Of a stretch of DNA of 64,000 nucleotides, positions 3,511-27,348 are shown piece by piece. The stretch comes from Salipiger abyssi (GTDB lineage: Bacteria; Pseudomonadota; Alphaproteobacteria; Rhodobacterales; Rhodobacteraceae). A program made the position numbers and the translations under genes. The DNA is taken from positions 17,401 to 81,400 of the forward strand of contig NZ_JAEKIS010000019.1 of the NCBI RefSeq assembly GCF_017311415.1. The letters run 5' to 3'. Under the pieces are notes generated by a model. The model saw nothing but the letters and a program-made list of their open reading frames with translations. It was not told where the DNA came from and ran no database searches. Positions within the stretch are counted from its first letter, which is position 1; each line of letters begins with the position of its first letter.

Positions 3511-3711
3511 ATGGCAGAGCGACACAGATCCGAAGACGGCCGCCGCGAGACCGAAGAGTATCTCGACAAGGCGGACACGCCGGCGCAGCAGGGCCGCGAC
3601 GGCGGCCAGGTGGAGCGTAAGGTCGGCACGCGCGACCTGCTCAAGCGCGCGGAGCAGGACCGGCCCGGTGCGACGCGGGTCCGCAAATCCGACGAGAAAT
3701 CCGAATCGTAA
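3511..3711 (+). CDS. Small hydrophilic protein of unknown function
   Basis: 66 residues, strongly charged (many Glu, Asp, Arg, Lys), without signal peptide or membrane segment, and low in hydrophobic residues, so it is probably largely disordered. A strong ribosome site (AAAGGAGG) lies just before the ATG, which supports real translation. The host-attachment-family gene starts 12 bases after its stop, so the two form one short operon divergent from the protease gene. I do not recognise a family. Confidence 0.6.
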   Translation: MAERHRSEDGRRETEEYLDKADTPAQQGRDGGQVERKVGTRDLLKRAEQDRPGATRVRKSDEKSES

Positions 3712-4891: not shown

Positions 4892-5908
4892 TTAAAACTG
4901 GTCTTCCAGCTTCTTCGCGAGATCCTCGATGTTGTCCGGCGGCCAGTCCTCGACATCCATGCCGAGATGCAGACCCATGGAGGACAGCACTTCCTTGATC
5001 TCGTTCAGCGACTTGCGGCCGAAGTTCGGGGTGCGGAGCATCTCGGCTTCGGTTTTCTGGATCAGGTCGCCGATATAGACGATATTGTCGTTCTTCAGAC
5101 AGTTGGCCGAACGCACGGAAAGCTCCAGCTCGTCCACCTTCTTGAGGAGGAGCGGGTTGAATTCCAGACCGTCGTCGTCGTCCTGACGCGAGGCGCTTTC
5201 GGGCTCTTCGAAGTTCACGAAGATCGACAGCTGATCCTGAAGGATGCGCGCCGCATAGGCAATCGCGTCCTCGGGGGTGACCGAGCCGTCGGTCTCCACC
5301 TTCATGGTCAGCTTGTCATAGTCCAGCACCTGGCCCTCACGGGTCGGCTGCACCTCATAGGCGACCTTCTTGACCGGCGAATAGATGGCGTCGATCGGGA
5401 TCAGGCCGATGGGCGCGTCTTCCGGCTTGTTCTTGTCGGCCGAGACATAGCCCTTGCCGGTGTTGACGGTCAGTTCCACGTAGAAATCCGCACCGTCGTC
5501 GAGGTGGCAGATCACGTGGTCCTTGTTCAGAACGTCGATGCCGGCGGTTTCCGCGATGTCGGCAGCGGTTACGACGCCCGGGCCTTTTGCGTTGATCGAC
5601 AAGCGCTTGGGCCCCTCGACTTCCATACGCAGCGAAACGCCCTTGAGGTTCAGGACGATATCCGTCACATCTTCGCGCACACCGGCGACGGACGAAAACT
5701 CGTGCAGAACGTTGTCGATTTGCACGCTGGTGATGGCCGCGCCCTGAAGGCTCGACAGCAGCACCCGGCGCAGGGCGTTGCCCAGCGTCAGGCCAAAGCC
5801 GCGCTCCAGCGGTTCGGCGACGACCGTGGCCACGCGGGTCGGGTCTGCGCCGGGGCGAACCTCCAGCTGGGTCGGCTTGATCAGTTCAGCCCAATTCTTG
5901 TGGATCAT
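4892..5908 (-). CDS. rpoA: RNA polymerase alpha subunit
   Basis: 338 residues. The N-terminal assembly domain is seen in [17 protein letters not shown] and [28 protein letters not shown]. The C-terminal domain that contacts activators and UP elements includes [44 protein letters not shown] (read in parts). GGAGGG precedes the ATG at 5906-5908. Standard position between rpsK and rplQ. The gap to rplQ is 210 bases and holds two palindromic repeats, which is longer than usual for this operon. Confidence 0.98.
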
Positions 5909-19150: not shown

Positions 19151-19165
19151 TGGTAGCGGAGGAGG
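19151..19165 (+). repeat. Left attachment repeat
   Basis: TGGTAGCGGAGGAGG, identical to 27272-27286 at the 3' end of the tRNA gene. The bases beyond differ at once, so the shared core is 15 bp. Confidence 0.85.
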
Positions 19166-19282
19166 CTACCGATGCAATGTCTGCCAGCATCTAAGGCCGT
19201 CTAAAATACCATTTGTTCACAGCTACTTGATAAGCAAGCATGTCTGCTACCGTCTTGAAATGGGTGCCTAGTTCTGCCAGAT

Positions 19283-19314
19283 TTCTTAGGCAGAGATTAG
19301 GCAGAGGGTTAGGA
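19283..19314 (+). repeat. TTAGGCA motif pair before int
   Basis: TTAGGCA at 19286-19292 and again at 19297-19303, start to start 11 bases, plus a partial TTAGGA at 19309. They lie inside the left end and reach the integrase start codon, so they could be integrase or excisionase sites that also control int. Confidence 0.75.
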
Positions 19315-19315
19315 C

Positions 19316-20728
19316 ATGCGGGAAATCTATCGGCTAAGCGACAGGGCGGTGCGGGCAATCACAGGGCCAGAGCCGGGCAAGACGGTCATGCGCCTGAACG
19401 ACGGCGGCGGGCTGTTCCTTCGCGTCACCAAACACAAGAGCAAGCAAGGCGTCGAACGCGTGTCGAAGTCATGGGAATTCTTCTTCACGTTGAACAGCAA
19501 GACTTCCTGCACCGGCCTTGGCCCCTATGCGCCGAACGATAAAGCACCCGGCCTGACGTTGAAGGCAGCGCGGGACAAAGCGCACGAACTCCGCAAGATC
19601 GTCGCCGAAGGTCGCAACCCCGTCGCAGAACGGAAGGCGGCACGGGCGAACGCCGACGTGCGGAAGGTCGTAACGTTCGCCGACGCGTTGGACGACTATA
19701 CGAAGGGCGGGCGCGTTCAGGGTTTCAAGAGCGAACGCCACCGGCACAACTGGCGGGCCAGCATCGAAATCCATGCCCTGCCGAAGATTGGTGACATAGA
19801 CGTTGGCGCGATTAGCCGTAACGACATTGAAAGCGTGCTGGAACCCCTGTGGGCAACCAAGACCGAAACCGCCCGCCGCGTTCGTATGCGGCTGTCGAAA
19901 GTCTTTGAATGGGCGATCTATAAGGGTTGGCGCGAAACCGACGACCCGTCTTCGCTTAGTATGCTTAAGGTCTGGATTGACAACCAAGGCGCAGCCGAAA
20001 AGAGCCACCACCCCGCATTGCCGTTGGAAGATATGCCCGCATGGTTCGGCGAACTGCGGAAGCGCGACGGTATGGCGGCGCGGGCGCTAGAACTTCTGGC
20101 CCTGTGCGCCGTGCGGCAGGACAACGTTATCAACGCGACATGGGACCAATTCCACGACCTAGACGGCGATAGCCCGACGTGGCGGATTTCGTCGCGCGAC
20201 ATGAAGGTGAAGACCGACAAGGACGGAAAGCCCCTGCCCGAACACCGTGTGCCGTTGCCGAAAGCCGCCGTCGAAATGCTCCGCAGGCTGCCGCGCGAAG
20301 CTAGCCCCCGTAAGAAGGATGGCAGGACATTGGTATTTCCCGCCCCGCGTGGTGGCGAACTTTCCACGGCAGGTATCCGCAAGGTCTTGGAGCGGATGCA
20401 CAATGCGGAATTACGTGCCGGTCGGAAGGGATGGATTGACCCCAACGTGTTGACCAAGCCGGAAGACCCGAGCGAAGCCCCGCAACCGAAAATGGCTGTG
20501 CCCCATGGCTTCCGCAGCACCTTCAAGGACTACTGCGCGCAGCGTGGGTTCGACAATATCCAAAGCGAAATCGCTCTTGCCCACAACGTAGGCGACAAGG
20601 TGTTTCAAGCCTACCTTCGCACCGATCTTGTAGAGCAACGCCGCGCCATGATGAACGCATGGGCCGGATTCTGCCACGGCGACGAACCCACCGCCAACGT
20701 GGTTCAGCTTCGTGAGGCAACAGCATGA
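19316..20728 (+). CDS. int: Tyrosine-type site-specific integrase (P4 type)
   Basis: 470 residues. N-terminal arm-binding domain of the DUF4102 kind (LSDRAVRAI, NDGGGLFLRV, TLKAARDKAHELRKIVAEGRNP), a core-binding SAM-like domain (about 118-215) and the catalytic domain with Arg267 (CAVRQDN), His397 and Arg400 (HGFRSTF), His423 (ALAHNVGD) and Tyr433 (QAYLRTD). P4-type integrases recombine at the 3' ends of tRNA genes, which fits the attachment repeats here. It is the first gene inside the left end, at the opposite end from the intact tRNA gene. Its stop overlaps the next start (ATGA). Confidence 0.95.
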   Translation: MREIYRLSDRAVRAITGPEPGKTVMRLNDGGGLFLRVTKHKSKQGVERVSKSWEFFFTLNSKTSCTGLGPYAPNDKAPGLTLKAARDKAHELRKIVAEGRNPVAERKAARANADVRKVVTFADALDDYTKGGRVQGFKSERHRHNWRASIEIHALPKIGDIDVGAISRNDIESVLEPLWATKTETARRVRMRLSKVFEWAIYKGWRETDDPSSLSMLKVWIDNQGAAEKSHHPALPLEDMPAWFGELRKRDGMAARALELLALCAVRQDNVINATWDQFHDLDGDSPTWRISSRDMKVKTDKDGKPLPEHRVPLPKAAVEMLRRLPREASPRKKDGRTLVFPAPRGGELSTAGIRKVLERMHNAELRAGRKGWIDPNVLTKPEDPSEAPQPKMAVPHGFRSTFKDYCAQRGFDNIQSEIALAHNVGDKVFQAYLRTDLVEQRRAMMNAWAGFCHGDEPTANVVQLREATA

Positions 20729-21219
20729 CCGATAGCAGGCACGAAGACCTTGCCGCATTCATCGGTTGCACAGTCGCCGACGTTGAAACTGCATTCGGTG
20801 ACTTGTTCGGCTTCGCGCTGTGGGCAGCGGAACGTTCGGAAACCGGGGTGGCAAAGAAGGAAGCGACGAACCTGCGCGCCATCGCCGATGAACTGGACAA
20901 AGTGCCCGGTTCCGATCTTAGCGACATGCGCGACGAATTACAGATGCGCGCCAAGGCCGCAGAGCATTTCACAGACAATCGCGCATACCCCGCGACCAAA
21001 GGCCGTAGGGAACGGGCGCGGGTTATCGCCTGCGCCGTAGCACGCGTTTTCGTGGCGACCGGGCGCAACATCGGCAAGGGCACGTCACAGAACGATGCGG
21101 GCGAACCAACGTCGAAATACGGGCAGGCGGTCAAGCAAGCCCTTGAACTGTATGGAATTCGGGCGAATTGGCGTCAGCCCGCGAAGGACGCAGCGGCCCA
21201 ATATAGCAATACCAACTAA
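20725..21219 (+). CDS. Element protein of unknown function, coupled to int
   Basis: 164 residues, mostly helical by composition, no membrane segment or signal peptide. The middle is charged (RERARVIACAVARVFVATGRN). The ATG overlaps the integrase stop, so it is probably translated with it. I do not recognise the family. Position beside int makes a role in integration, excision or element control possible, without further support. Confidence 0.7.
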   Translation: MTDSRHEDLAAFIGCTVADVETAFGDLFGFALWAAERSETGVAKKEATNLRAIADELDKVPGSDLSDMRDELQMRAKAAEHFTDNRAYPATKGRRERARVIACAVARVFVATGRNIGKGTSQNDAGEPTSKYGQAVKQALELYGIRANWRQPAKDAAAQYSNTN

Positions 21220-21279
21220 CCCCCGATTTTTCATTTCAGTTGGCATTTTTTCAGGGCGCGGCGTTTCGGTCAATTTTCA

Positions 21280-21301
21280 CACATGCCCCCATAGACATGT
21301 G
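21280..21301. promoter_or_regulatory. CACATG/CATGTG dyad before alpA
   Basis: CACATG (21280-21285), ten bases, CATGTG (21296-21301), ending at the ribosome site of the AlpA-like gene. A possible operator for autoregulation. Confidence 0.35.
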
Positions 21302-21313
21302 AGGAACCTACCA

Positions 21314-21616
21314 ATGAGCACCCCGACCACCGACGCTAGCAAGCCCGGCCCCACCTTCACCCCCGCGCAGCTTGTCCCGAACGCCCTTCTGCGAACCCCC
21401 GCCGTTTGCACCGTCACCGGCATGGCCCGCCCGACGCTCTATCAGGCGATGGCCGAAGGGCTGTTCCCCCGACCGATCAAACTTGGCGAAAAGTCTTCGG
21501 CGTGGCCTGCGTCCGAAGTGAACGCCGTGCTTGCCGCCCGCATCGCCGGTCGCAGCAACGACGAAATCCGCGAACTTGTCACCGAACTGACCGCCGCGCG
21601 CAAACTCCGCGTTTGA
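21314..21616 (+). CDS. AlpA-like MerR-fold regulator/excisionase
   Basis: 100 residues. A DNA-binding helix-turn-helix of the AlpA/excisionase kind: LLRTPAVCTVTGMARPTLYQAMAEGLFPRP followed by LGEKSSAWPASEVNAVLAARI, the typical wing with a conserved Trp. Proteins of this family in P4-like elements activate int or act as directionality factors. GAGGA precedes the ATG at 21314; an open frame reaches further upstream but without family similarity. Candidate binder of the TTAGGCA/TGCCTAA pairs. Confidence 0.88.
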   Translation: MSTPTTDASKPGPTFTPAQLVPNALLRTPAVCTVTGMARPTLYQAMAEGLFPRPIKLGEKSSAWPASEVNAVLAARIAGRSNDEIRELVTELTAARKLRV

Positions 21617-21695
21617 CGCTATGGCAGCACCATACGCTGCCATTCTTCGTCGTAGTTATCTGAAAAACATAGATAAGTGCAGGGGCGCATTTACT

Positions 21696-21720
21696 TGCCT
21701 AAGCCCTGCCTAAGAACAGG
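21696..21720 (-). repeat. TGCCTAA motif pair before the primase gene
   Basis: TGCCTAA at 21696-21702 and 21707-21713, 11 bases apart, the second within TGCCTAAGAACAGG. It ends 6 bases before the primase start codon. Opposite orientation to the pair before int. Confidence 0.75.
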
Positions 21721-21726
21721 CACGAC

Positions 21727-23637
21727 ATGACCGCGCAAACCGCATTAGAGAACATACCCCAAGAACTGCGGTCGTATCCTCAATGGGTATGCCACGACGC
21801 AGCAAAACGCCCGATCAATCCCCACACGGGGCAGCTAGCCGACGTGTCCGACCCTACGACATGGGGCAGCTTCGACCAAGCCCGCACAATAGCCGAAGCC
21901 GGGCGGTGCGCAGGCGTCGGCTTCGTGTTCACCGATAGCGATCCGTTCGTTGGTATTGACCTTGACGTGTCCGAAGGCTCGGGACCGTCCGACGGGCAAC
22001 AACGCATCTTCGGGGCGTTCAACACCTACGCAGAACATTCGCCGTCCGCGCGTGGCCTGCATATTATCGCCAAGGGCAGGGTATCCGACGGCGGCGTGCG
22101 CAACAGCGCATTGGGCGTCGAAGTCTATTCGTCGGGCCGGTTCTTCACGTTTACGGGCAACGTTGTGCGTAGCGCACCGATTGCCGAATGCCAGCCACTT
22201 GTTGACGCGCTGTGCGCCGAAATCAGGCCACACCGGGACACAGGGGCGGGCGAAACGCCAAACCCATGCCCCGCGCCGCAGATCACCGACGAAACCTTGC
22301 GCGAACGCATCTGCGAAAGCGCCGCGAACCGGGACTACTACGAAGGCCGCGTGTCGGATTGGTCAGCCGCATACTTCGCCCTGATTTGCGCCGCGTGCCT
22401 CTTTTCCAGCGACGAAGCGCAGGTGCGCCGTATCGTTATGGCAAGCCCCTTGGTGCAGGACGCTCCGCCGAAGGGCCGTGAGACGCGGGCACAGAAGGCC
22501 GAACGCCTGTGGGCACGGGAATACGCCAGCGCCGCCCGCAGGGGCGCACAGGAACGGCAGGAACGCACGCAGGCGGTGGAGCATGGGCGACAACTGGCCG
22601 CTGGCCTGTCCGGGCAGCTAGCCCGCGCCACGGCCCCGGCACAGGGCCAGGACGAAAAGCCGGGCCGGTCGCTGCTACGTTCGGCCCGCGACCTGCAACA
22701 CCGGCACTTCCCCGCGATCCGTTGGGCCGTGCCGAATGTCCTGCCCGAAGGTTTGACCATTTTTGCGGGCGTGCCCAAGGTCGGGAAAAGTTGGTTCGCC
22801 CTTGATGTTGCCCGCGCCAAAGCCGACGGCGATTGCGTGCTTGGGCAGCAATGCGACCGCGGCGACGTGTTGATGCTGGCCCTTGAAGACAACGAACGCC
22901 GGTTGCAGGACCGTTTTCGTCGGATCACAGGCGGGGGCGACTTCCCCGACAACCTCGACTACGCGACCGAATGGCCGCGCCTTGACGAAGGCGGCGTAGA
23001 CTACGTTGCGAACTGGATTGAGGGTGCGGCGAACCCTTCGCTTATCGTCATTGACACGCTCGCCATGGTGAAGCCGGTGCCCACAGGGCGGAACAAATCG
23101 GCCTATGACCACGACGTGAGCGCGTTGAAGCCGCTGCACCGCCTTGCCAGCGAAAAACGCGTGGCAATCGTCGTGGTGACGCACACCCGGAAGGCGCAAG
23201 CCGACGAACCCGTAGAACGCGTAAGTTCGACACTTGGCCTAACCGGCGTCGCCGATACGATCATGCTTTTGGGGCGTGGCCCCCGCGAAGCTACCGGCAT
23301 TCTCTATGCCCGTGGCCGGGACATTGCCGAATTTGAACTTGCGGTGAAGTTTGAAGATCACCGTTGGCAGGTCGAAGGCGACCCGAAGCTAGCCTTCGCA
23401 GGCGACACGCAGAAAATCCTAATCGACGCCATGACCAAGGGCGCAACCACGCCGAAGGAAATGGAAGAAGCGACCGGGCTTTCGGGCGAAAACGTGCGCC
23501 AAACCCTGCAACGTATGGTCAAGGCACAGCGCGTTTTCCGGCATGGCTACGGGAAGTATGCCTTGCCCGCATGGACCGACACCCCGGCTTTCCTCCTAGA
23601 TACCCCCCATCACACTAGTCACAGTCACAATGGGTAG
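21727..23637 (+). CDS. Primase-helicase replication protein (archaeo-eukaryotic primase-like plus RepA-type AAA ATPase)
   Basis: 636 residues. The N-terminal part resembles the small primase-polymerase fold: GIDLD (76-80) as the metal-binding hhDhD, SARGLHI (107-113) as the sxH motif, then LGVEVYSSGRFFTFTG. A charged linker (about 240-325) follows. The second half is a RecA-like RepA helicase (AAA_25): Walker A GVPKVGKS (348-355) and Walker B LIVID (439-443), then LTHTRKA-like VVTHTRKA. The last 75 residues look like a winged helix (ATTPKEMEEATGLSGENVRQTLQRM). This would let the element start its own replication after excision. No other replication gene is seen. Confidence 0.88.
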   Translation: MTAQTALENIPQELRSYPQWVCHDAAKRPINPHTGQLADVSDPTTWGSFDQARTIAEAGRCAGVGFVFTDSDPFVGIDLDVSEGSGPSDGQQRIFGAFNTYAEHSPSARGLHIIAKGRVSDGGVRNSALGVEVYSSGRFFTFTGNVVRSAPIAECQPLVDALCAEIRPHRDTGAGETPNPCPAPQITDETLRERICESAANRDYYEGRVSDWSAAYFALICAACLFSSDEAQVRRIVMASPLVQDAPPKGRETRAQKAERLWAREYASAARRGAQERQERTQAVEHGRQLAAGLSGQLARATAPAQGQDEKPGRSLLRSARDLQHRHFPAIRWAVPNVLPEGLTIFAGVPKVGKSWFALDVARAKADGDCVLGQQCDRGDVLMLALEDNERRLQDRFRRITGGGDFPDNLDYATEWPRLDEGGVDYVANWIEGAANPSLIVIDTLAMVKPVPTGRNKSAYDHDVSALKPLHRLASEKRVAIVVVTHTRKAQADEPVERVSSTLGLTGVADTIMLLGRGPREATGILYARGRDIAEFELAVKFEDHRWQVEGDPKLAFAGDTQKILIDAMTKGATTPKEMEEATGLSGENVRQTLQRMVKAQRVFRHGYGKYALPAWTDTPAFLLDTPHHTSHSHNG

Positions 23638-23690
23638 CCCTCTCTAGATACCCCCCGTCACAGTAGTAACAGAGAGAGTGACTGTGACGG
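23596..23690. repeat. Direct and inverted repeats at the end of the primase gene; possible origin
   Basis: CTAGATACCCCCC-A/G-TCACA occurs at 23596 and 23644, 48 bases apart. In addition GTCACAGTCAC (23618-23628) is the exact reverse complement of GTGACTGTGAC (23678-23688), so the segment could fold or bind a dimer. It covers the last primase codons and the following gap. A replication origin beside the initiator gene is plausible but not shown. Confidence 0.6.
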
Positions 23691-23728
23691 CTGTGATTGT
23701 GATCCCTTAAAGAAAGGACCGCCCCGCC

Positions 23729-24310
23729 ATGTATGTTCACGACGCAATCACCCATAGCAGGCTTTCGGACCTATTCGACATGGCCGAAGACATGATACTT
23801 GGACGCGGCTGCTATTCGCCCGACGTGGTGGAGCAAGTGCTTTTCGACCGATACATGTATTTCGTGTCGGCTTATCTGTCGGGATGCACGCAATATCTTC
23901 TGACCGAAGAGCGTTGTGCAGGCGAAAGCTTTATCTGCGAACTGTGCGAGAAAGCCGGGGCGACGAAGTTTCTGCGCTATAGCTACAAGATGGCCGAACA
24001 ACTCATGGCGCAACCCCGCTTCTACTTCCCGAATTTTGAGCAAATGGCGACCGCAAAGTATCTGGACATGCTCAACAACATAGACGACGTTGACCGCCTG
24101 CGGTTTTCCGGCTTGGTGTTGTTCGCCGTTGCGCACATTCCCGGTGCCCGAAGCGACATGCGCCGCATTCTACGTCGTAGGGGCATTGACGGTGGCGAAC
24201 GGTATATCCCGACGCTTGTTGCCGACGAAACCATGACGCAGCGTATCCGCGCGGTGCAGGGGTTGCCCCCTGTGGGGAAGGGCCGAAAGCGCATTCGCAA
24301 GCACGCGTAG
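23729..24310 (+). CDS. Element protein of unknown function
   Basis: 193 residues with no recognised domain. Cysteines are fairly frequent (for example SGCTQYLL, ERCAGESFICELCEKAG), but no zinc-ribbon spacing is convincing. The C terminus is basic (GKGRKRIRKHA). AAAGGACC lies before the ATG. It follows the primase gene after the repeat region and precedes a 260-base gap with a TGCCTAA pair, so it probably ends the replication operon. Confidence 0.7.
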   Translation: MYVHDAITHSRLSDLFDMAEDMILGRGCYSPDVVEQVLFDRYMYFVSAYLSGCTQYLLTEERCAGESFICELCEKAGATKFLRYSYKMAEQLMAQPRFYFPNFEQMATAKYLDMLNNIDDVDRLRFSGLVLFAVAHIPGARSDMRRILRRRGIDGGERYIPTLVADETMTQRIRAVQGLPPVGKGRKRIRKHA

Positions 24311-24390
24311 AATATATGGTAGCCATATAGGCTGCCGATTTTCGGCATAACTACGTGTAACGAATCAGGATTTTCCCGACGCAGTTTCCC

Positions 24391-24414
24391 CGCCTATAGA
24401 TTGCCTAAGAACAG
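24391..24414 (-). repeat. GCCTA motif pair before the second gene cluster
   Basis: GCCTA at 24392 and TGCCTAAGAACAG at 24402, with GCCTA cores 11 bases apart. TGCCTAAGAACAG repeats 13 of 13 bases of the site before the primase gene. It lies in the 260-base gap before 24571, where a promoter for the next cluster is expected. Confidence 0.7.
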
Positions 24415-24570
24415 TCTGAAATATCAACGCGCTTTCGTTCGCATAAACTATTTTTGTCTTCATTTGTCTATTTTGAAACTCATGCCTGAATTCGTTTGAC
24501 CGCTTGGAATTGACCCGGCTTAGCTTTCGATAAGACGCCCATAATGGGCCGGAATTGACGGGTTCAGGCA

Positions 24571-24831
24571 ATGGAAAACGCAGCACCTACAGCGGCATGG
24601 GGCAACACCCCCCACCCCCAAGAGGGGAAAGCCCGTCGTGTGCGCGTGAAGCTGGATAGCGTGACCGACGCCCGCAAGGAAATGGCGAAGCTATACCGCG
24701 AAGCCCGCGCCGGGAAAATCGACGTGCAGGACGCAAGCCGCTTGGCAAACATTCTCATGCTTATAGGTCGCATGATCGAAGGCAGCGACTTTGAGCGCCG
24801 CCTAGAAGCCCTTGAAGCGGGGGAACGGTAA
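24571..24831 (+). CDS. Small element protein of unknown function
   Basis: 86 residues. The centre RVRVKLDSVTDARKEMAKLYREARAGKIDVQDASRLANILMLIGRMI (read in parts) resembles small helical proteins often found next to terminase or in integrated elements of alphaproteobacteria; their function is unknown to me. The stop overlaps the next ATG by one base. First gene of a four-gene cluster. Confidence 0.7.
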   Translation: MENAAPTAAWGNTPHPQEGKARRVRVKLDSVTDARKEMAKLYREARAGKIDVQDASRLANILMLIGRMIEGSDFERRLEALEAGER

Positions 24832-25091
24832 TGGCCTGCCCCGCAATCGCCGCACGCCTGAAACGGCTGGAAACCCGCAACCGACCGCCCGTCCGGGTTC
24901 ACGGTTCCGTCGCGCGGTTCACGCCCCAAGGCCAGCTTATCGGCACCATGCCGAAGGGGCCGTGCATGATCGTGACCGACCACGGGTCCGACGACGAATG
25001 GCAGGCCGCGCTATTGGCGCAGCAAGCCCGACTTATCAACGAAGCAAGCGAAACAATCGCAGAAGAAGAAGGAAATAGGCACAATGCGTAG
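24831..25091 (+). CDS. Small element protein of unknown function
   Basis: 86 residues starting MACPAIAARLKRLETRN. A central strand-rich part (VRVHGSVARFTPQGQLIG, MIVTDHGSDDEWQAAL) and a charged C terminus. No family recognised. It overlaps both neighbours (1 base before, 8 bases after), so the cluster is tightly coupled. Confidence 0.65.
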   Translation: MACPAIAARLKRLETRNRPPVRVHGSVARFTPQGQLIGTMPKGPCMIVTDHGSDDEWQAALLAQQARLINEASETIAEEEGNRHNA

Positions 25092-25809
25092 CGTCATGGG
25101 AAGCCCCGCAATCGGGCACGCAGAAGGGAATAGCGTTCATCTTGTCCCGTCGCGGGCAAACACGATCCAGAATTTGCGCACAAACACTTGGCTGCGCATC
25201 AAGCTTGGCGACCCGGCGAAGCTTCCGAGCGTGAAGAACGATCTTGAAGCCCTGTTTTCCAAGGTCACGGCGACGACCGAAAAGGCGCAGAAGCTAGCGG
25301 GCGACCGGACGCGCAACAAGGCGCAACAGCACATGGCCGCGCACGAACTTGCCGTGCAGCTTTCCAGCGACCTGCGGCGTCACGCCCAAATTTTCGGGAA
25401 GAAGGCCAATGAACTCAAAGACGACGGGCAGGCCGTCGCCGACGAAATCTTGGGACCGCGCGATAACTATGGCTATCTGCAATCCGAAATCCGGGGCTGG
25501 ATCAGGGACCAAATCAAGACACCGGAAGGGATGCAGAAGGTATCCAACGCCTACAAGGTGGATTTGCAGGTCGCATCCACCATCTATTCTTCGCCGTCGT
25601 TTCTCATGGATATGACCGACCAATTGCATTCGACCATGCGCTTGAAAGCCGTCGAACTTTTCGCGCCGTCGGGCTTCAAGCTGTTGAATGAAGGTGTCGA
25701 ACTTGCCGACAAGGTGCAGAACTACGAACGCGTCGTAGGCGACGTGCATTCGTCGTATTACTCGCACGAAGTCGTTGAAGCGGCACAGGCAAGCCGCGTC
25801 GAAGTCTAA
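25084..25809 (+). CDS. Element protein of unknown function, largely helical
   Basis: 241 residues, no signal peptide or membrane segment, long helical stretches (LEALFSKVTATTEKAQKLAGDRTR; HELAVQLSSDLRRHAQIFGKKANEL). It is the largest protein of the four-gene cluster. No enzyme motif is visible. A structural or capsid-interacting role, as in phage satellites, is possible but only a guess from size and position. Confidence 0.68.
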   Translation: MRSVMGSPAIGHAEGNSVHLVPSRANTIQNLRTNTWLRIKLGDPAKLPSVKNDLEALFSKVTATTEKAQKLAGDRTRNKAQQHMAAHELAVQLSSDLRRHAQIFGKKANELKDDGQAVADEILGPRDNYGYLQSEIRGWIRDQIKTPEGMQKVSNAYKVDLQVASTIYSSPSFLMDMTDQLHSTMRLKAVELFAPSGFKLLNEGVELADKVQNYERVVGDVHSSYYSHEVVEAAQASRVEV

Positions 25810-26309
25810 TGACCGCCGCGACGGACATAGCAAAGCTGGTCGCATGGATTGCGGCCAGTAGCCCGGCGAAGCGGCCCGCGCCGATGCACGGCTATGTGCA
25901 GGTGCCGCCCTATGCGTGCCTGTGGCCGATTGACCCCGCCGTTGCGGCCTATCCCGATTGGAGCGGGCTAGGGGAGCGCCAGTTGCCCTTGTGCGTGCCC
26001 ACAGCAGCCCTAGCCGCCCCGGTGATGGATCAGCGCCTAGGCTGGTCCTGTGCGGCCCTGCCAGCCGTTTCCGAGCGCCTGCACCATATCATGCACCATG
26101 TGCCGGAAAGCCGATGGGACGTGCCCACCTGCCTAGCTGTGGGCATCACTTCGCCCGCAACCACGATCAACGCCGCCCTTGCCGCCGAAGGCTTGGCCGT
26201 AGACCTGACCGAAACCGCCTTGCTTGCCGTGCCGCTCTATACCGTTACCGCGTCGGATCGTGCCCGCACCCTTGAAGTCTGCCGCAGCACCTACGCCGTC
26301 GCCGTCTGA
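25809..26309 (+). CDS. Element protein of unknown function
   Basis: 166 residues, rich in Ala, Pro and Val with many His and Trp residues (MHGYVQVPPYACLWPID; LHHIMHHVPESRWDVPTC). No recognised domain. It starts on the last base of the previous stop and ends the plus-strand cluster; a terminator follows. Confidence 0.65.
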   Translation: MTAATDIAKLVAWIAASSPAKRPAPMHGYVQVPPYACLWPIDPAVAAYPDWSGLGERQLPLCVPTAALAAPVMDQRLGWSCAALPAVSERLHHIMHHVPESRWDVPTCLAVGITSPATTINAALAAEGLAVDLTETALLAVPLYTVTASDRARTLEVCRSTYAVAV

Positions 26310-26339
26310 CATAGCTACCCGAAGTGCCAAGGGCAACTG

Positions 26340-26379
26340 ACCCCGGTTCGCGTTCAACGACGCAGCCGGGGTTTCTTTT
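26340..26379 (+). terminator. Terminator of the element's plus-strand cluster
   Basis: ACCCCGG (26340-26346) and CCGGGGT (26366-26372), followed by TTCTTTT. It lies between convergent genes. Confidence 0.75.
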
Positions 26380-27020
26380 CATTCGTCAGGCGCAGGACGC
26401 GGCGGGATATACGAAACTGGCCCCATTGTCTCAGCCCCTTCAAAGTAGAAAAGCCCAAATTCGTCGGCAAGTTTTTTGATAGCACTAGACTTCCAAATCA
26501 CTTTCGGCCCGCCGTGGTTGATAGCCCAAGCAACCATTCCCGGCTTTGGGTCATCTATCATCAGGTCAAACCAAACCTTTTCATCGGGCTTCCAAACCAC
26601 ATTGTCGGGCAGCAATGCTTTGAGGAAAGGCGCGCACCTTGCAATGTCGCACCAAACTTCGGCAAGCGTGTCCCTCAAACCGACGTCTCTACTGGACATT
26701 GTGACAAGTCGATAAACCATCGCCGCCCACATGAACCAAGCGAACCGACGCATATTGATCTCATCTCTAGCGGCAGACTGTTTTTCAGCGCATTCAATGA
26801 TGAAGTCATCTATCGAGAATGCCGAACCCTGTTGCTTTGCAACGTTGTGCATCGCGCCGACAATTGGAATCAGGTTTTGATACGCTACAAGCACATGCGC
26901 TTTTGTCGCGTTGTCCAATCCATCAAATAGTTCTTTGACGAAGTTCGCATAGTCAGCGTTCCCGCCGTTGAGTATTGCTCGCAACGGGTTCTCAGTCTTC
27001 TTTTTCAGGAACCCGAACAT
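26379..27020 (-). CDS. Minus-strand cargo protein of unknown function
   Basis: 213 residues from the ATG at 27018-27020, which follows GGGGGT at good spacing (a start five codons earlier is also open). The N terminus MFGFLKKKTENPLRAIL is basic and amphipathic; the rest is mixed helical (FAWFMWAAMVYRLV is hydrophobic but short). It is the only gene on the minus strand in the element and looks less GC-rich than its neighbours. Genes placed like this, next to the far attachment site, are often accessory (for example defence) genes, but no defence domain is recognised. Confidence 0.7.
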   Translation of the reverse strand: MFGFLKKKTENPLRAILNGGNADYANFVKELFDGLDNATKAHVLVAYQNLIPIVGAMHNVAKQQGSAFSIDDFIIECAEKQSAARDEINMRRFAWFMWAAMVYRLVTMSSRDVGLRDTLAEVWCDIARCAPFLKALLPDNVVWKPDEKVWFDLMIDDPKPGMVAWAINHGGPKVIWKSSAIKKLADEFGLFYFEGAETMGPVSYIPPRPAPDE

Positions 27021-27200
27021 CAAATACCCCCGCATTTACAGCCATAGTGATCTAAGCACTTCGAGGGCGCGGTTGGGAAGAGTTTTCGGGCCGAACCCAT
27101 GTCGTTCGACCGGACGGCGACCACAGAAGGGTGCGGCACGCGGTCACGTCTTCGTGAGCGCGTGCGGGGCTTTCGGGGCCGATTTAACGGCTGTCCGAAC

Positions 27201-27220
27201 CTAGGCAATTCTTAGGCAGG
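27201..27220 (+). repeat. TAGGCA motif pair inside the right end
   Basis: TAGGCA at 27202-27207 and, within TTCTTAGGCAGGG, at 27213-27218: 11 bases apart. TTCTTAGGCAG also occurs at the left end (19283). It lies 52 bases inside the right attachment repeat, where integrase arm sites are expected. Confidence 0.75.
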
Positions 27221-27271: not shown

Positions 27272-27286
27272 TGGTAGCGGAGGAGG
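27272..27286 (+). repeat. Right attachment repeat within tRNA gene
   Basis: TGGTAGCGGAGGAGG, the complement of the tRNA 3' end, including CCA; identical to 19151-19165. The tRNA stays intact at this junction. Confidence 0.85.
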
Positions 27287-27348
27287 GACTTGAACCCCCG
27301 ACACGCGGATTATGATTCCGCTGCTCTAACCAACTGAGCTACTCCGCC
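27272..27348 (-). tRNA. tRNA-Met (anticodon CAT)
   Basis: 77 bases with encoded CCA. Acceptor GGCGGAG/CTCCGCT (first pair G-U), D arm GCTC/GAGC with AGTTGGTTA, anticodon arm GCGGA/TCCGC with loop ATCATAA, T arm GGGGG/CCCTC with TTCAAGT. CAT can be elongator Met or the lysidine-modified Ile2; it is not the initiator type, which would have an unpaired first position with CA. Elongator Met is most likely. It is the integration target of the element on its left. Confidence 0.93.

What the first reader, a model, noticed from the sequence alone, without database searches (positions are those of the whole stretch)
19283..27220. TTAGGCA/TGCCTAA motif in 11-bp-phased pairs at four key sites of the element
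Pairs at 19286/19297 (TTAGGCA), 21696/21707 (TGCCTAA), 24392/24403 (GCCTA cores) and 27202/27213 (TAGGCA) all have an 11-base period, one helical turn. The longer word TGCCTAAGAA (or its complement) occurs at all four. Positions are telling: inside both ends, at the int start, before the primase gene, and before the late cluster. One protein could thus link excision, replication and late expression. The AlpA-like protein or the integrase arm domain are the best candidates. No existing feature type explains it.
Basis: seen in the sequence. Interest (0 to 1): 0.78.

Follow-up and report, generated by a model that had tools for sequence, protein, structure and literature searches.

The report
Integrase arm sites as internal switches
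An 8-kb satellite-like element carries the same paired, 11-bp-spaced DNA word at both ends, before its primase-like gene and before its predicted packaging genes, and relatives carry other words in the same layout, so the element's own integrase is predicted to read all four sites and would likely switch those genes as well as move the element.

Summary
Relatives do not keep the word but keep the layout: each has its own word on + at the int start and far end, and inverted before the primase-like gene and/or the late genes (internal pairs in 10 of 12 elements). End pairs match the annotated 'attP arm sequence repeats' of P4, and such pairs lie upstream of 63 of 96 integrases of this kind. Word similarity follows the integrase N-terminal domain more than AlpA. 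GTCY repeats with a 10-bp period, at the int promoter region and before orf6, are the better AlpA-box candidate, though covariation did not confirm that. Best reading: integrase arm-type sites, two recruited as internal operators through which integrase would restrain replication and packaging genes. Binding and direction of control are inferred. Integrase autoregulation is known; I found no report of internal arm pairs at such genes (8 paper searches).

The parts
19151..19165 (.). attL core, 15-bp direct repeat TGGTAGCGGAGGAGG (copy of the tRNA-Met 3' end)
   Evidence: longest exact repeat between the two ends
19179..19202 (+). GTCY/ATCT repeats, 10-bp period, three units; candidate AlpA boxes between core and integrase arm site
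   Evidence: assignment to AlpA inferred
19242..19255 (+). GTCT-N6-GTCT, 10-bp period, running into a -35-like TTGAAA of int; candidate AlpA box
   Evidence: promoter inferred, not found by the consensus scan
19286..19304 (+). site 1: TTAGGCAGagaTTAGGCAG, predicted integrase arm-type pair 11 bp before the int ATG (third imperfect repeat TTAGGAC 19309-19315)
19316..20728 (+). int, tyrosine integrase with PF13356 Arm-DNA-bind_3 N-terminal domain (residues 7-109)
20725..21219 (+). orf2, overlaps int by ATGA; resembles in position the PICMI 'iolg' gene; no family match
21308..21616 (+). AlpA-family regulator/excisionase (PF05930)
21695..21713 (-). site 2: inverted pair TTAGGCAGggcTTAGGCAA (read on -), 13 bp before the primase-like gene's ATG; predicted integrase operator
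21727..23637 (+). rep: primase-like N-terminal part (phrog_3022) and AAA_25 domain
23729..24310 (+). orf5, unknown
24391..24408 (-). site 3: inverted pair, one strong and one degenerate half, 162 bp before orf6; predicted integrase operator
24456..24469 (+). GTCTtcatttGTCT, 10-bp period, 115 bp before orf6; candidate AlpA box
   Evidence: same position, -114 to -116, in 6 of 13 satellites
24571..24831 (+). orf6, hallmark gene of this satellite group; no family match
24831..25091 (+). orf7, residues 33-74 match the end of phrog_5334 (terminase small subunit)
   Evidence: E 1.3e-6
25084..25809 (+). orf8, unknown, 98-99% identical in L054 and L055
25809..26309 (+). orf9, unknown
26379..27035 (-). 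orf10, unknown accessory gene
27201..27219 (+). site 4: CTAGGCAAttcTTAGGCAG, predicted integrase arm-type pair inside the attR end
27272..27286 (.). attR core TGGTAGCGGAGGAGG
27272..27348 (-). tRNA-Met (CAT), integration target

Best explanation
The four pairs most likely are binding sites for the N-terminal arm domain of the element's own integrase: the pairs at the two ends (sites 1 and 4) would be the attP arm sites used for recombination, and the two inverted internal pairs (sites 2 and 3) would let integrase sit before the primase-like gene and the packaging cluster and likely hold them back while the element is integrated. Shown here: the pairs, their exclusive location in the element, the different word per element in the same layout, the inverted orientation of every internal pair counted, and words that follow the integrase N-terminal domain more than AlpA. 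Inferred: that integrase binds, that binding at the int start represses int (as reported for P4 and KplE1 IntS), that binding 13 bp before rep and upstream of orf6 represses them, and that AlpA, through separate GTCY boxes with a 10-bp period at the int promoter region and before orf6, pushes the other way (less int, excision, late genes on).
For: (1) GCCTA-N6-GCCTA: 4 in 5.2 Mb, all in the element. (2) Each relative has its own word at int start and far end on + and inverted internally: for example L054 GGGTAGA at 5180+, 7399-, 9784-, 12955+, the same four places and orientations as here. (3) With matrices built only from the int-start pair, the own word is found inverted before rep in 8 of 12 elements, before orf5 in 3 of 11 and before orf6 in 3 of 11; 14 pairs in 10 of 12 elements, all 14 on the strand opposite to int; the own matrix beat the other elements' matrices at 12 of the 14. 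(4) L054 and L055 share orf6-orf8 with this element (95-100% protein identity) and the 120 bp before orf6 align closely, but their integrases differ and the word before orf6 differs accordingly. (5) P4's record annotates two 12-bp direct-repeat pairs as 'attP arm sequence repeat', one next to the int start and one across the core, same orientation. (6) Upstream of 96 Arm-type integrase ORFs an 8-mer pair (7/8 or better, period 11 or 12) is found in 63, exact in 34, against 12.0% and 1.7% of 2065 control ORFs. (7) Word similarity: r 0.64 with integrase N-terminal identity, 0.59 with AlpA, 0.32 with the integrase catalytic part; partial 0.39 (N-terminal given AlpA) versus 0.22 (AlpA given N-terminal) (47 loci). 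Pairs alike in the N-terminal domain but not AlpA: mean word score 6.46 of 8 (59 pairs); alike in AlpA but not N-terminal: 5.43 (20 pairs); alike in neither: 4.14 (587 pairs). This element and L065 have 79% identical AlpA domains and different words (score 3.5). (8) A separate 10-bp-period repeat lies upstream of the arm pair (lag 10: 35 against 5.3 expected; lags 11 and 12 only in the last 45 bp). (9) Published autoregulation: P4 Int and Vis on Pint (PMC7286903, passages), KplE1 IntS and TorI (PMC2951348, abstract and passages).
Against: No binding data. The partial correlation of the word with AlpA given the integrase is not zero (0.22, permutation p 0.006), and related sequences inflate both. 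Without the GGGGG-type words (23 loci) the signal shrinks (partial 0.22 for N-terminal, 0.10 for AlpA). The 10-bp boxes did not covary with AlpA better than with integrase (18 loci; partial 0.22, p 0.055, against 0.38, p 0.001), so their assignment to AlpA is not confirmed. Two of 12 elements (L072, L067) lack internal pairs, L060 has no clear pair at all, and the site before orf6 lies 162-198 bp upstream, not at the start codon. Some internal pairs have one weak half (site 3 here, both in L055, rep of L065). No sigma-70-like promoter was found at int, rep or orf6 by the consensus scan. P4 itself has no internal pair. In PICMI, int seems constitutive and AlpA acts on excision, not on transcription (PMC10803314, passages).
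Confidence: 0.66

Rival explanations
1. AlpA binds all four pairs and acts as excisionase and as regulator of int, rep and the late genes, like Apl of phage 186 or Cox of P2.
For: AlpA-family proteins are excisionases and regulators; Apl operators are direct repeats one helix turn apart at att and at promoters (PMC7498355, passages). The word also correlates with AlpA (r 0.59; partial 0.22, p 0.006).
Against: Elements with alike AlpA and different integrase N-terminal domains have different words (this element and L065, 79% identity; L064 and L075, 67%), and L069 and L072 have 89% identical AlpA with different words. N-terminal 85% with AlpA 57% keeps the word (L054, L057). Pairs in both arms in the same orientation match the P4 arm repeats. 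A second, 10-bp repeat family is present and fits AlpA. L133, L140 and L141 have pairs but no AlpA in the fetched 8-20 kb.
Confidence: 0.17
2. The end pairs are integrase arm sites; the internal pairs are also bound by integrase but serve DNA architecture (synapsis, looping, direction of recombination) or titrate integrase, not transcription.
For: Integrase is bivalent (arm and core); the inverted orientation of all 14 internal pairs would keep them from acting as a false arm.
Against: The sites sit 13-21 bp before rep or 11-22 bp before orf5 start codons in most elements that have them, a place that suits an operator; looping has no need for that precision.
Confidence: 0.12
3. The internal pairs are replication control sites (iterons or Rep boxes) that happen to share the word.
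For: Site 2 abuts the primase-like gene and site 3 lies in a 260-bp gap without a gene.
Against: The word changes together with the int-start word in each element. In this element and L033/L056 the replication genes are unrelated enough that tblastn with this element's primase gave no hit there, yet site 2 is at the same distance.
Confidence: 0.04
4. Chance repeats.
For: Genome-wide total of four equals the simple expectation for 5.2 Mb.
Against: All four in 8.1 kb; same layout in relatives with other words.
Confidence: 0.01

Closest known systems
Satellite phage P4 attP arm repeats and Int/Vis control of Pint
   Same: Two direct-repeat pairs (12-bp units), one at the int start and one across the core, same orientation, integrase with arm-binding domain; Int and the AlpA-family protein Vis both repress the int promoter (PMC7286903 passages).
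   Different: P4 has no such pair before its primase gene alpha or the late genes (it has single repeats at 3621 and 3915), and has a separate repressor gene cI.
KplE1 prophage IntS/TorI
   Same: Arm sites overlap the int promoter, TorI sites near the -35, both proteins repress int (PMC2951348, abstract and passages); here the 10-bp repeats run into the -35-like box and the arm pair follows.
   Different: No internal arm pairs reported in the passages seen; arm motif differs.
Phage 186 Apl / P2 Cox operators
   Same: One recombination protein binding direct repeats one turn apart at att and at lytic/lysogenic promoters (PMC7498355, passages).
   Different: There the multifunctional protein is the excisionase; here the evidence points to the integrase.
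PICMI satellites (Vibrionaceae)
   Same: int, a gene overlapping int by ATGA, alpA, primase in that order (PMC10803314 passages).
   Different: Here integration at tRNA-Met, AAA_25-type replication gene, extra late cluster with a terminase-small-like piece; internal arm pairs not mentioned in the passages seen.
ICEMlSym-R7A IntS
   Same: Several IntS arm motifs in attP; IntS bound at attP shuts off intS (PMC11963761, passages).
   Different: No arm motifs at replication or packaging genes in the passages seen.

Membership tests
Integrase arm-type sites (P4-like integrase) | Integrase carries an arm-binding N-terminal domain | tested here: met
   PF13356 Arm-DNA-bind_3, E 1.5e-15, residues 7-109
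Integrase arm-type sites (P4-like integrase) | Direct-repeat pairs on both sides of the core in the same orientation, one next to int | tested here: met
   Sites 1 and 4; same as P4 record
Integrase arm-type sites (P4-like integrase) | Repeat sequence follows the arm domain between elements | tested here: met
   Stronger with the N-terminal domain than with the catalytic part or AlpA; weak in the 23-locus subset without GGGGG words
Integrase arm-type sites (P4-like integrase) | Integrase binds the repeats | not testable with these tools
   needs gel shift or footprint
AlpA/RDF operators (Apl, Cox, Vis, TorI type) | Direct repeats spaced one helix turn | tested here: met
   11 bp for sites 1-4, 10 bp for GTCY boxes
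AlpA/RDF operators (Apl, Cox, Vis, TorI type) | Sites 1-4 keep their sequence when AlpA is kept | tested here: not met
   This element and L065: AlpA domain 79% identical, words differ; L069 and L072: 89%, words differ
AlpA/RDF operators (Apl, Cox, Vis, TorI type) | GTCY 10-bp boxes follow AlpA between elements | tested here: inconclusive
   18 loci, partial 0.22 for AlpA and 0.38 for integrase
PICMI satellite | int, alpA and prim together | tested here: met
   the primase-like match is by PHROG only
PICMI satellite | Primase of the DUF3987/DUF5906 type used in the PICMI model | tested here: not met
   Pfam gives only AAA_25 (model)
PICMI satellite | Integration next to fis | tested here: not met
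   tRNA-Met; fis is optional in the published broad model
Phage satellite in general | Mobilised by a helper phage | not testable with these tools
   only gene content: int, AlpA, primase-like, terminase-small-like piece, no capsid or tail family match in the ten ORFs scanned

The most novel reading that the evidence does not exclude
The integrase is the master switch of a whole family of satellites: the enzyme that keeps the element in the chromosome also shuts its replication and packaging genes through inverted copies of its own arm sites, so no separate lysogeny repressor is needed, and every time an element acquires a new integrase its internal operators are rewritten to the new word.
Probability: 0.33. 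Interest if true: 0.8.

Novelty: new variant of a known kind. Interest (0 to 1): 0.61.

Why it matters
If true, a recombinase would double as the element-wide regulator, tying integration state to replication and packaging in one protein. It would explain how small satellites do without a recognisable repressor, would give a rule for reading integrase specificity from sequence (the word before int equals the internal operators), and would offer many natural word swaps for testing arm-domain recognition. It also warns that paired repeats before satellite replication genes need not be AlpA or Rep sites.

Tried and rejected
AlpA as reader of the four pairs: weakened by words that differ between elements with alike AlpA. 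Conservation of the word itself in relatives: rejected; it changes. In the first 31 loci (L001-L031) the exact or one-mismatch GCCTA pair was found only in the element's own copy L002 at no mismatch, with single one-mismatch hits in L001 and L014. Covariation of the 10-bp boxes with AlpA: inconclusive and leaning to integrase. Sigma-70 and terminator scan: 2 promoter-like hits, both on -, against 2.8 in shuffles; 9 terminator-like against 10.9; nothing usable. PADLOC on orf2, orf5, orf9, orf10: no match. PHROGs on the orf6 alignment: no match. Empty integration site: not found; in G088 (same genus) left flank and tRNA-Met are 16.8 kb apart, so other DNA sits there. PDB by sequence: integrase matched one chain (2khv, residues 120-212, not the arm domain), AlpA only weakly 8c3t at E 0.024. 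No structure was predicted. A viral-contig scan with AlpA gave one distant locus; one with orf6 gave L052 and L053, L052 being phage-like and not followed.

Rows dropped before counts. One search gave 26 orf6 loci; 12 were used with this element as the 13-satellite set (L054, L055, L056, L057, L060, L064, L065, L067, L069, L070, L072, L075). Nine had no integrase ORF (L058, L059, L062, L063, L066, L071, L074, L078, L079) and five (L061, L068, L073, L076, L077) had one but were not taken into that set, three of them without a convincing pair (L073, L076, L077), L061 and L068 with unconfirmed 7/8 pairs. One search scanned 12 (L060 left out for lack of a pair); one search scanned 12 (this element, ten of them, and L034; L060 and L070 left out, L070 being close to L067). 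Matrices were built from the int-start and far-end pairs, so its far-end hits are partly circular (except L065); one search used the int-start pair alone. The 96 integrase ORFs include L032 and L033 (same places as L065 and L056), L036 (truncated copy of L168), a second ORF in L141, and the near-identical L053 and L070. The automatic '42 of 62 confirmed by a second pair' is loose (this element's own automatic confirmation was at a wrong place) and is not used as evidence. One search dropped L032 and L033, dropped unconfirmed 7/8 pairs, and took the pairs of this element and L065 as read by eye; 53 loci remained, 47 with AlpA within 8 kb. The random windows were drawn from the whole locus, true sites included, and its p-values have a floor of 1/301; those before orf6 are only 0.040-0.053. 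One search used one query (int33) that I had translated out of frame; it matched only its own locus and its duplicate and was not used in the integrase model.


Full report
What was checked. The four pairs exist as described and are confined to the element: GCCTA-N6-GCCTA occurs four times in the own genome of 5,212,682 bases, all four at the reported places. Simple base composition would give about four in the genome but 0.006 in 8.1 kb. The element runs from a 15-bp core at 19151 to the same core at 27272, the 3' end of a tRNA-Met gene. Its genes are an integrase with an Arm-DNA-bind_3 domain, an ORF overlapping it by ATGA, AlpA, a primase-like/AAA_25 gene, orf5, orf6, orf7 (a 42-residue match to a terminase small subunit family), orf8, orf9 and an opposed orf10. 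'Packaging cluster' rests on that one partial match.

Relatives. AlpA hits in 78 of 394 genomes of the family led to two elements of the same build, L032 and L033. The word TTAGGCA is absent there, but L033, at the same tRNA-Met target, has GGGTAG pairs at the int start, before its replication gene and inside the far end. orf6 is rare (4 of 394 genomes) and was used, being neutral to integrase and AlpA, to collect 26 loci from about 85,000 species genomes. L054 (Mameliella sediminis) and L055 share orf6-orf8 at 95-100% protein identity with the window's element but have other integrases.

One word per element. In each element the word of the int-start pair comes back elsewhere: L054 GGGTAGA at 5180+, 7399-, 9784-, 12955+; L056 GGGTAGA at 5066+, 7850-, 12148+; L064 GTTGGCC, period 12, at 5217+, 9400-, 12200+; L075 GTGGTAG at 5715+, 13119+; L072 GTGGGAC at 5143+, 12703+. 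With matrices from the two end pairs, the next-best hits over 16-20 kb are inverted pairs 13-21 bp before the replication gene (this element, L054, L055, L056, L057, L065, L069), before orf5 (L064, L065, L075; 11-22 bp) or before orf6 (this element 162, L054 198, L055 176 bp). With matrices from the int-start pair alone the result stands: before rep in 8 of 12 elements (L034 included), orf5 3 of 11, orf6 3 of 11; 14 internal pairs in 10 of 12 elements, all 14 opposite to int in orientation; the own matrix scored best at 12 of 14, the exceptions being the rep sites of L054 and L056 (the output does not name the better matrix, but L054, L056 and L057 share nearly the same word). L072 and L067 have no internal pair; L060 has no clear pair.

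Which protein. The P4 record annotates two 12-bp direct-repeat pairs as 'attP arm sequence repeat', at the int start and across the core, same orientation; the unit is TTGGGGGCATAA-like. The same kind of pair lies upstream of 63 of 96 integrase ORFs of my panel (7 of 8 or better), exact in 34, against 12.0% and 1.7% of 2065 control ORFs. Word similarity correlates with integrase N-terminal identity (0.64), AlpA identity (0.59) and the catalytic part (0.32); partial correlations are 0.39 for the N-terminal domain given AlpA (p 0.0005), 0.22 for AlpA given the N-terminal domain (p 0.006), and -0.05 for the catalytic part given the N-terminal domain. Contrasts agree: this element and L065, AlpA 79%, N-terminal 48%, words differ; L054 and L057, N-terminal 85%, AlpA 57%, same word. 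The effect is weaker in the 23 loci without GGGGG words.

A second repeat system. Between core and arm pair, 4-mers recur at a lag of 10 bp (35 against 5.3 expected in 13 satellites; 195 against 35.5 in 78 other integrase loci), while lags of 11 and 12 dominate only in the last 45 bp before int (27 and 37 against 1.5 and 1.6). In this group the 10-bp unit is GTCY: 16 RTCY-N6-GTCY before int (7 of 13 loci; shuffles mean 0.28, maximum 2) and 8 before orf6 (mean 0.44, maximum 4), the latter at -114 to -116 in 6 of 13 loci. The unit nearest to int runs into a -35-like TTGA in several elements, as TorI sites do in KplE1 (PMC2951348, passages). I therefore take GTCY as the AlpA boxes, but covariation did not confirm this.

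Mechanism. Known: P4 Int and Vis, and KplE1 IntS and TorI, repress the int promoter (PMC7286903 and PMC2951348; passages). Proposed: integrase bound to site 1 restrains int; bound to site 2, directly upstream of the ribosome-binding region of rep (an ACAGGC-like stretch before the ATG in this element, L055, L065 and others), it would block rep; bound to site 3 it would dampen the late cluster or oppose AlpA at the boxes 48 bp downstream. AlpA, once induced, would lower int, favour excision and open the late genes. No match to a repressor family was found among the ten ORFs, though six of them have no family match at all, so this is weak support. Promoters are inferred; the consensus scan found none there.

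Novelty. Arm-type sites and integrase autoregulation are known. Inverted internal arm pairs before replication and late genes are not reported in what I saw from eight full-text searches of the open library and passages of five papers; subscription papers are mostly not held there. I rate it a new variant of a known kind.

Noticed in passing
window 20725-20728: int and orf2 overlap by ATGA, as int and 'iolg' do in most PICMI satellites, where iolg is essential for excision; orf2 has no family match.
   Followed up: partly
G088:C4:321667-339017: A genome of the same genus has about 16.8 kb between the homologous left flank and the same tRNA-Met gene, so another insertion may use this target.
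   Followed up: no
L032 about 12098 (L065 about 4420): A single TTAGGCAGAG half-site like this element's word lies left of the L032 element, perhaps a relic of another element there (seen).
   Followed up: no
L054, L055 versus window 24500-26309: orf6-orf8 are 95-100% identical in protein across three elements with different integrases: a packaging-type module swapped as a block.
   Followed up: partly
L038 2848-12590: Another integrase element with AGCACTAA pairs (period 11) 9.7 kb apart, outside the satellite set.
   Followed up: no
L171 3915-3926 and 3621-3632: P4 has two single arm repeats, one inverted at the int start codon and one inside int.
   Followed up: no
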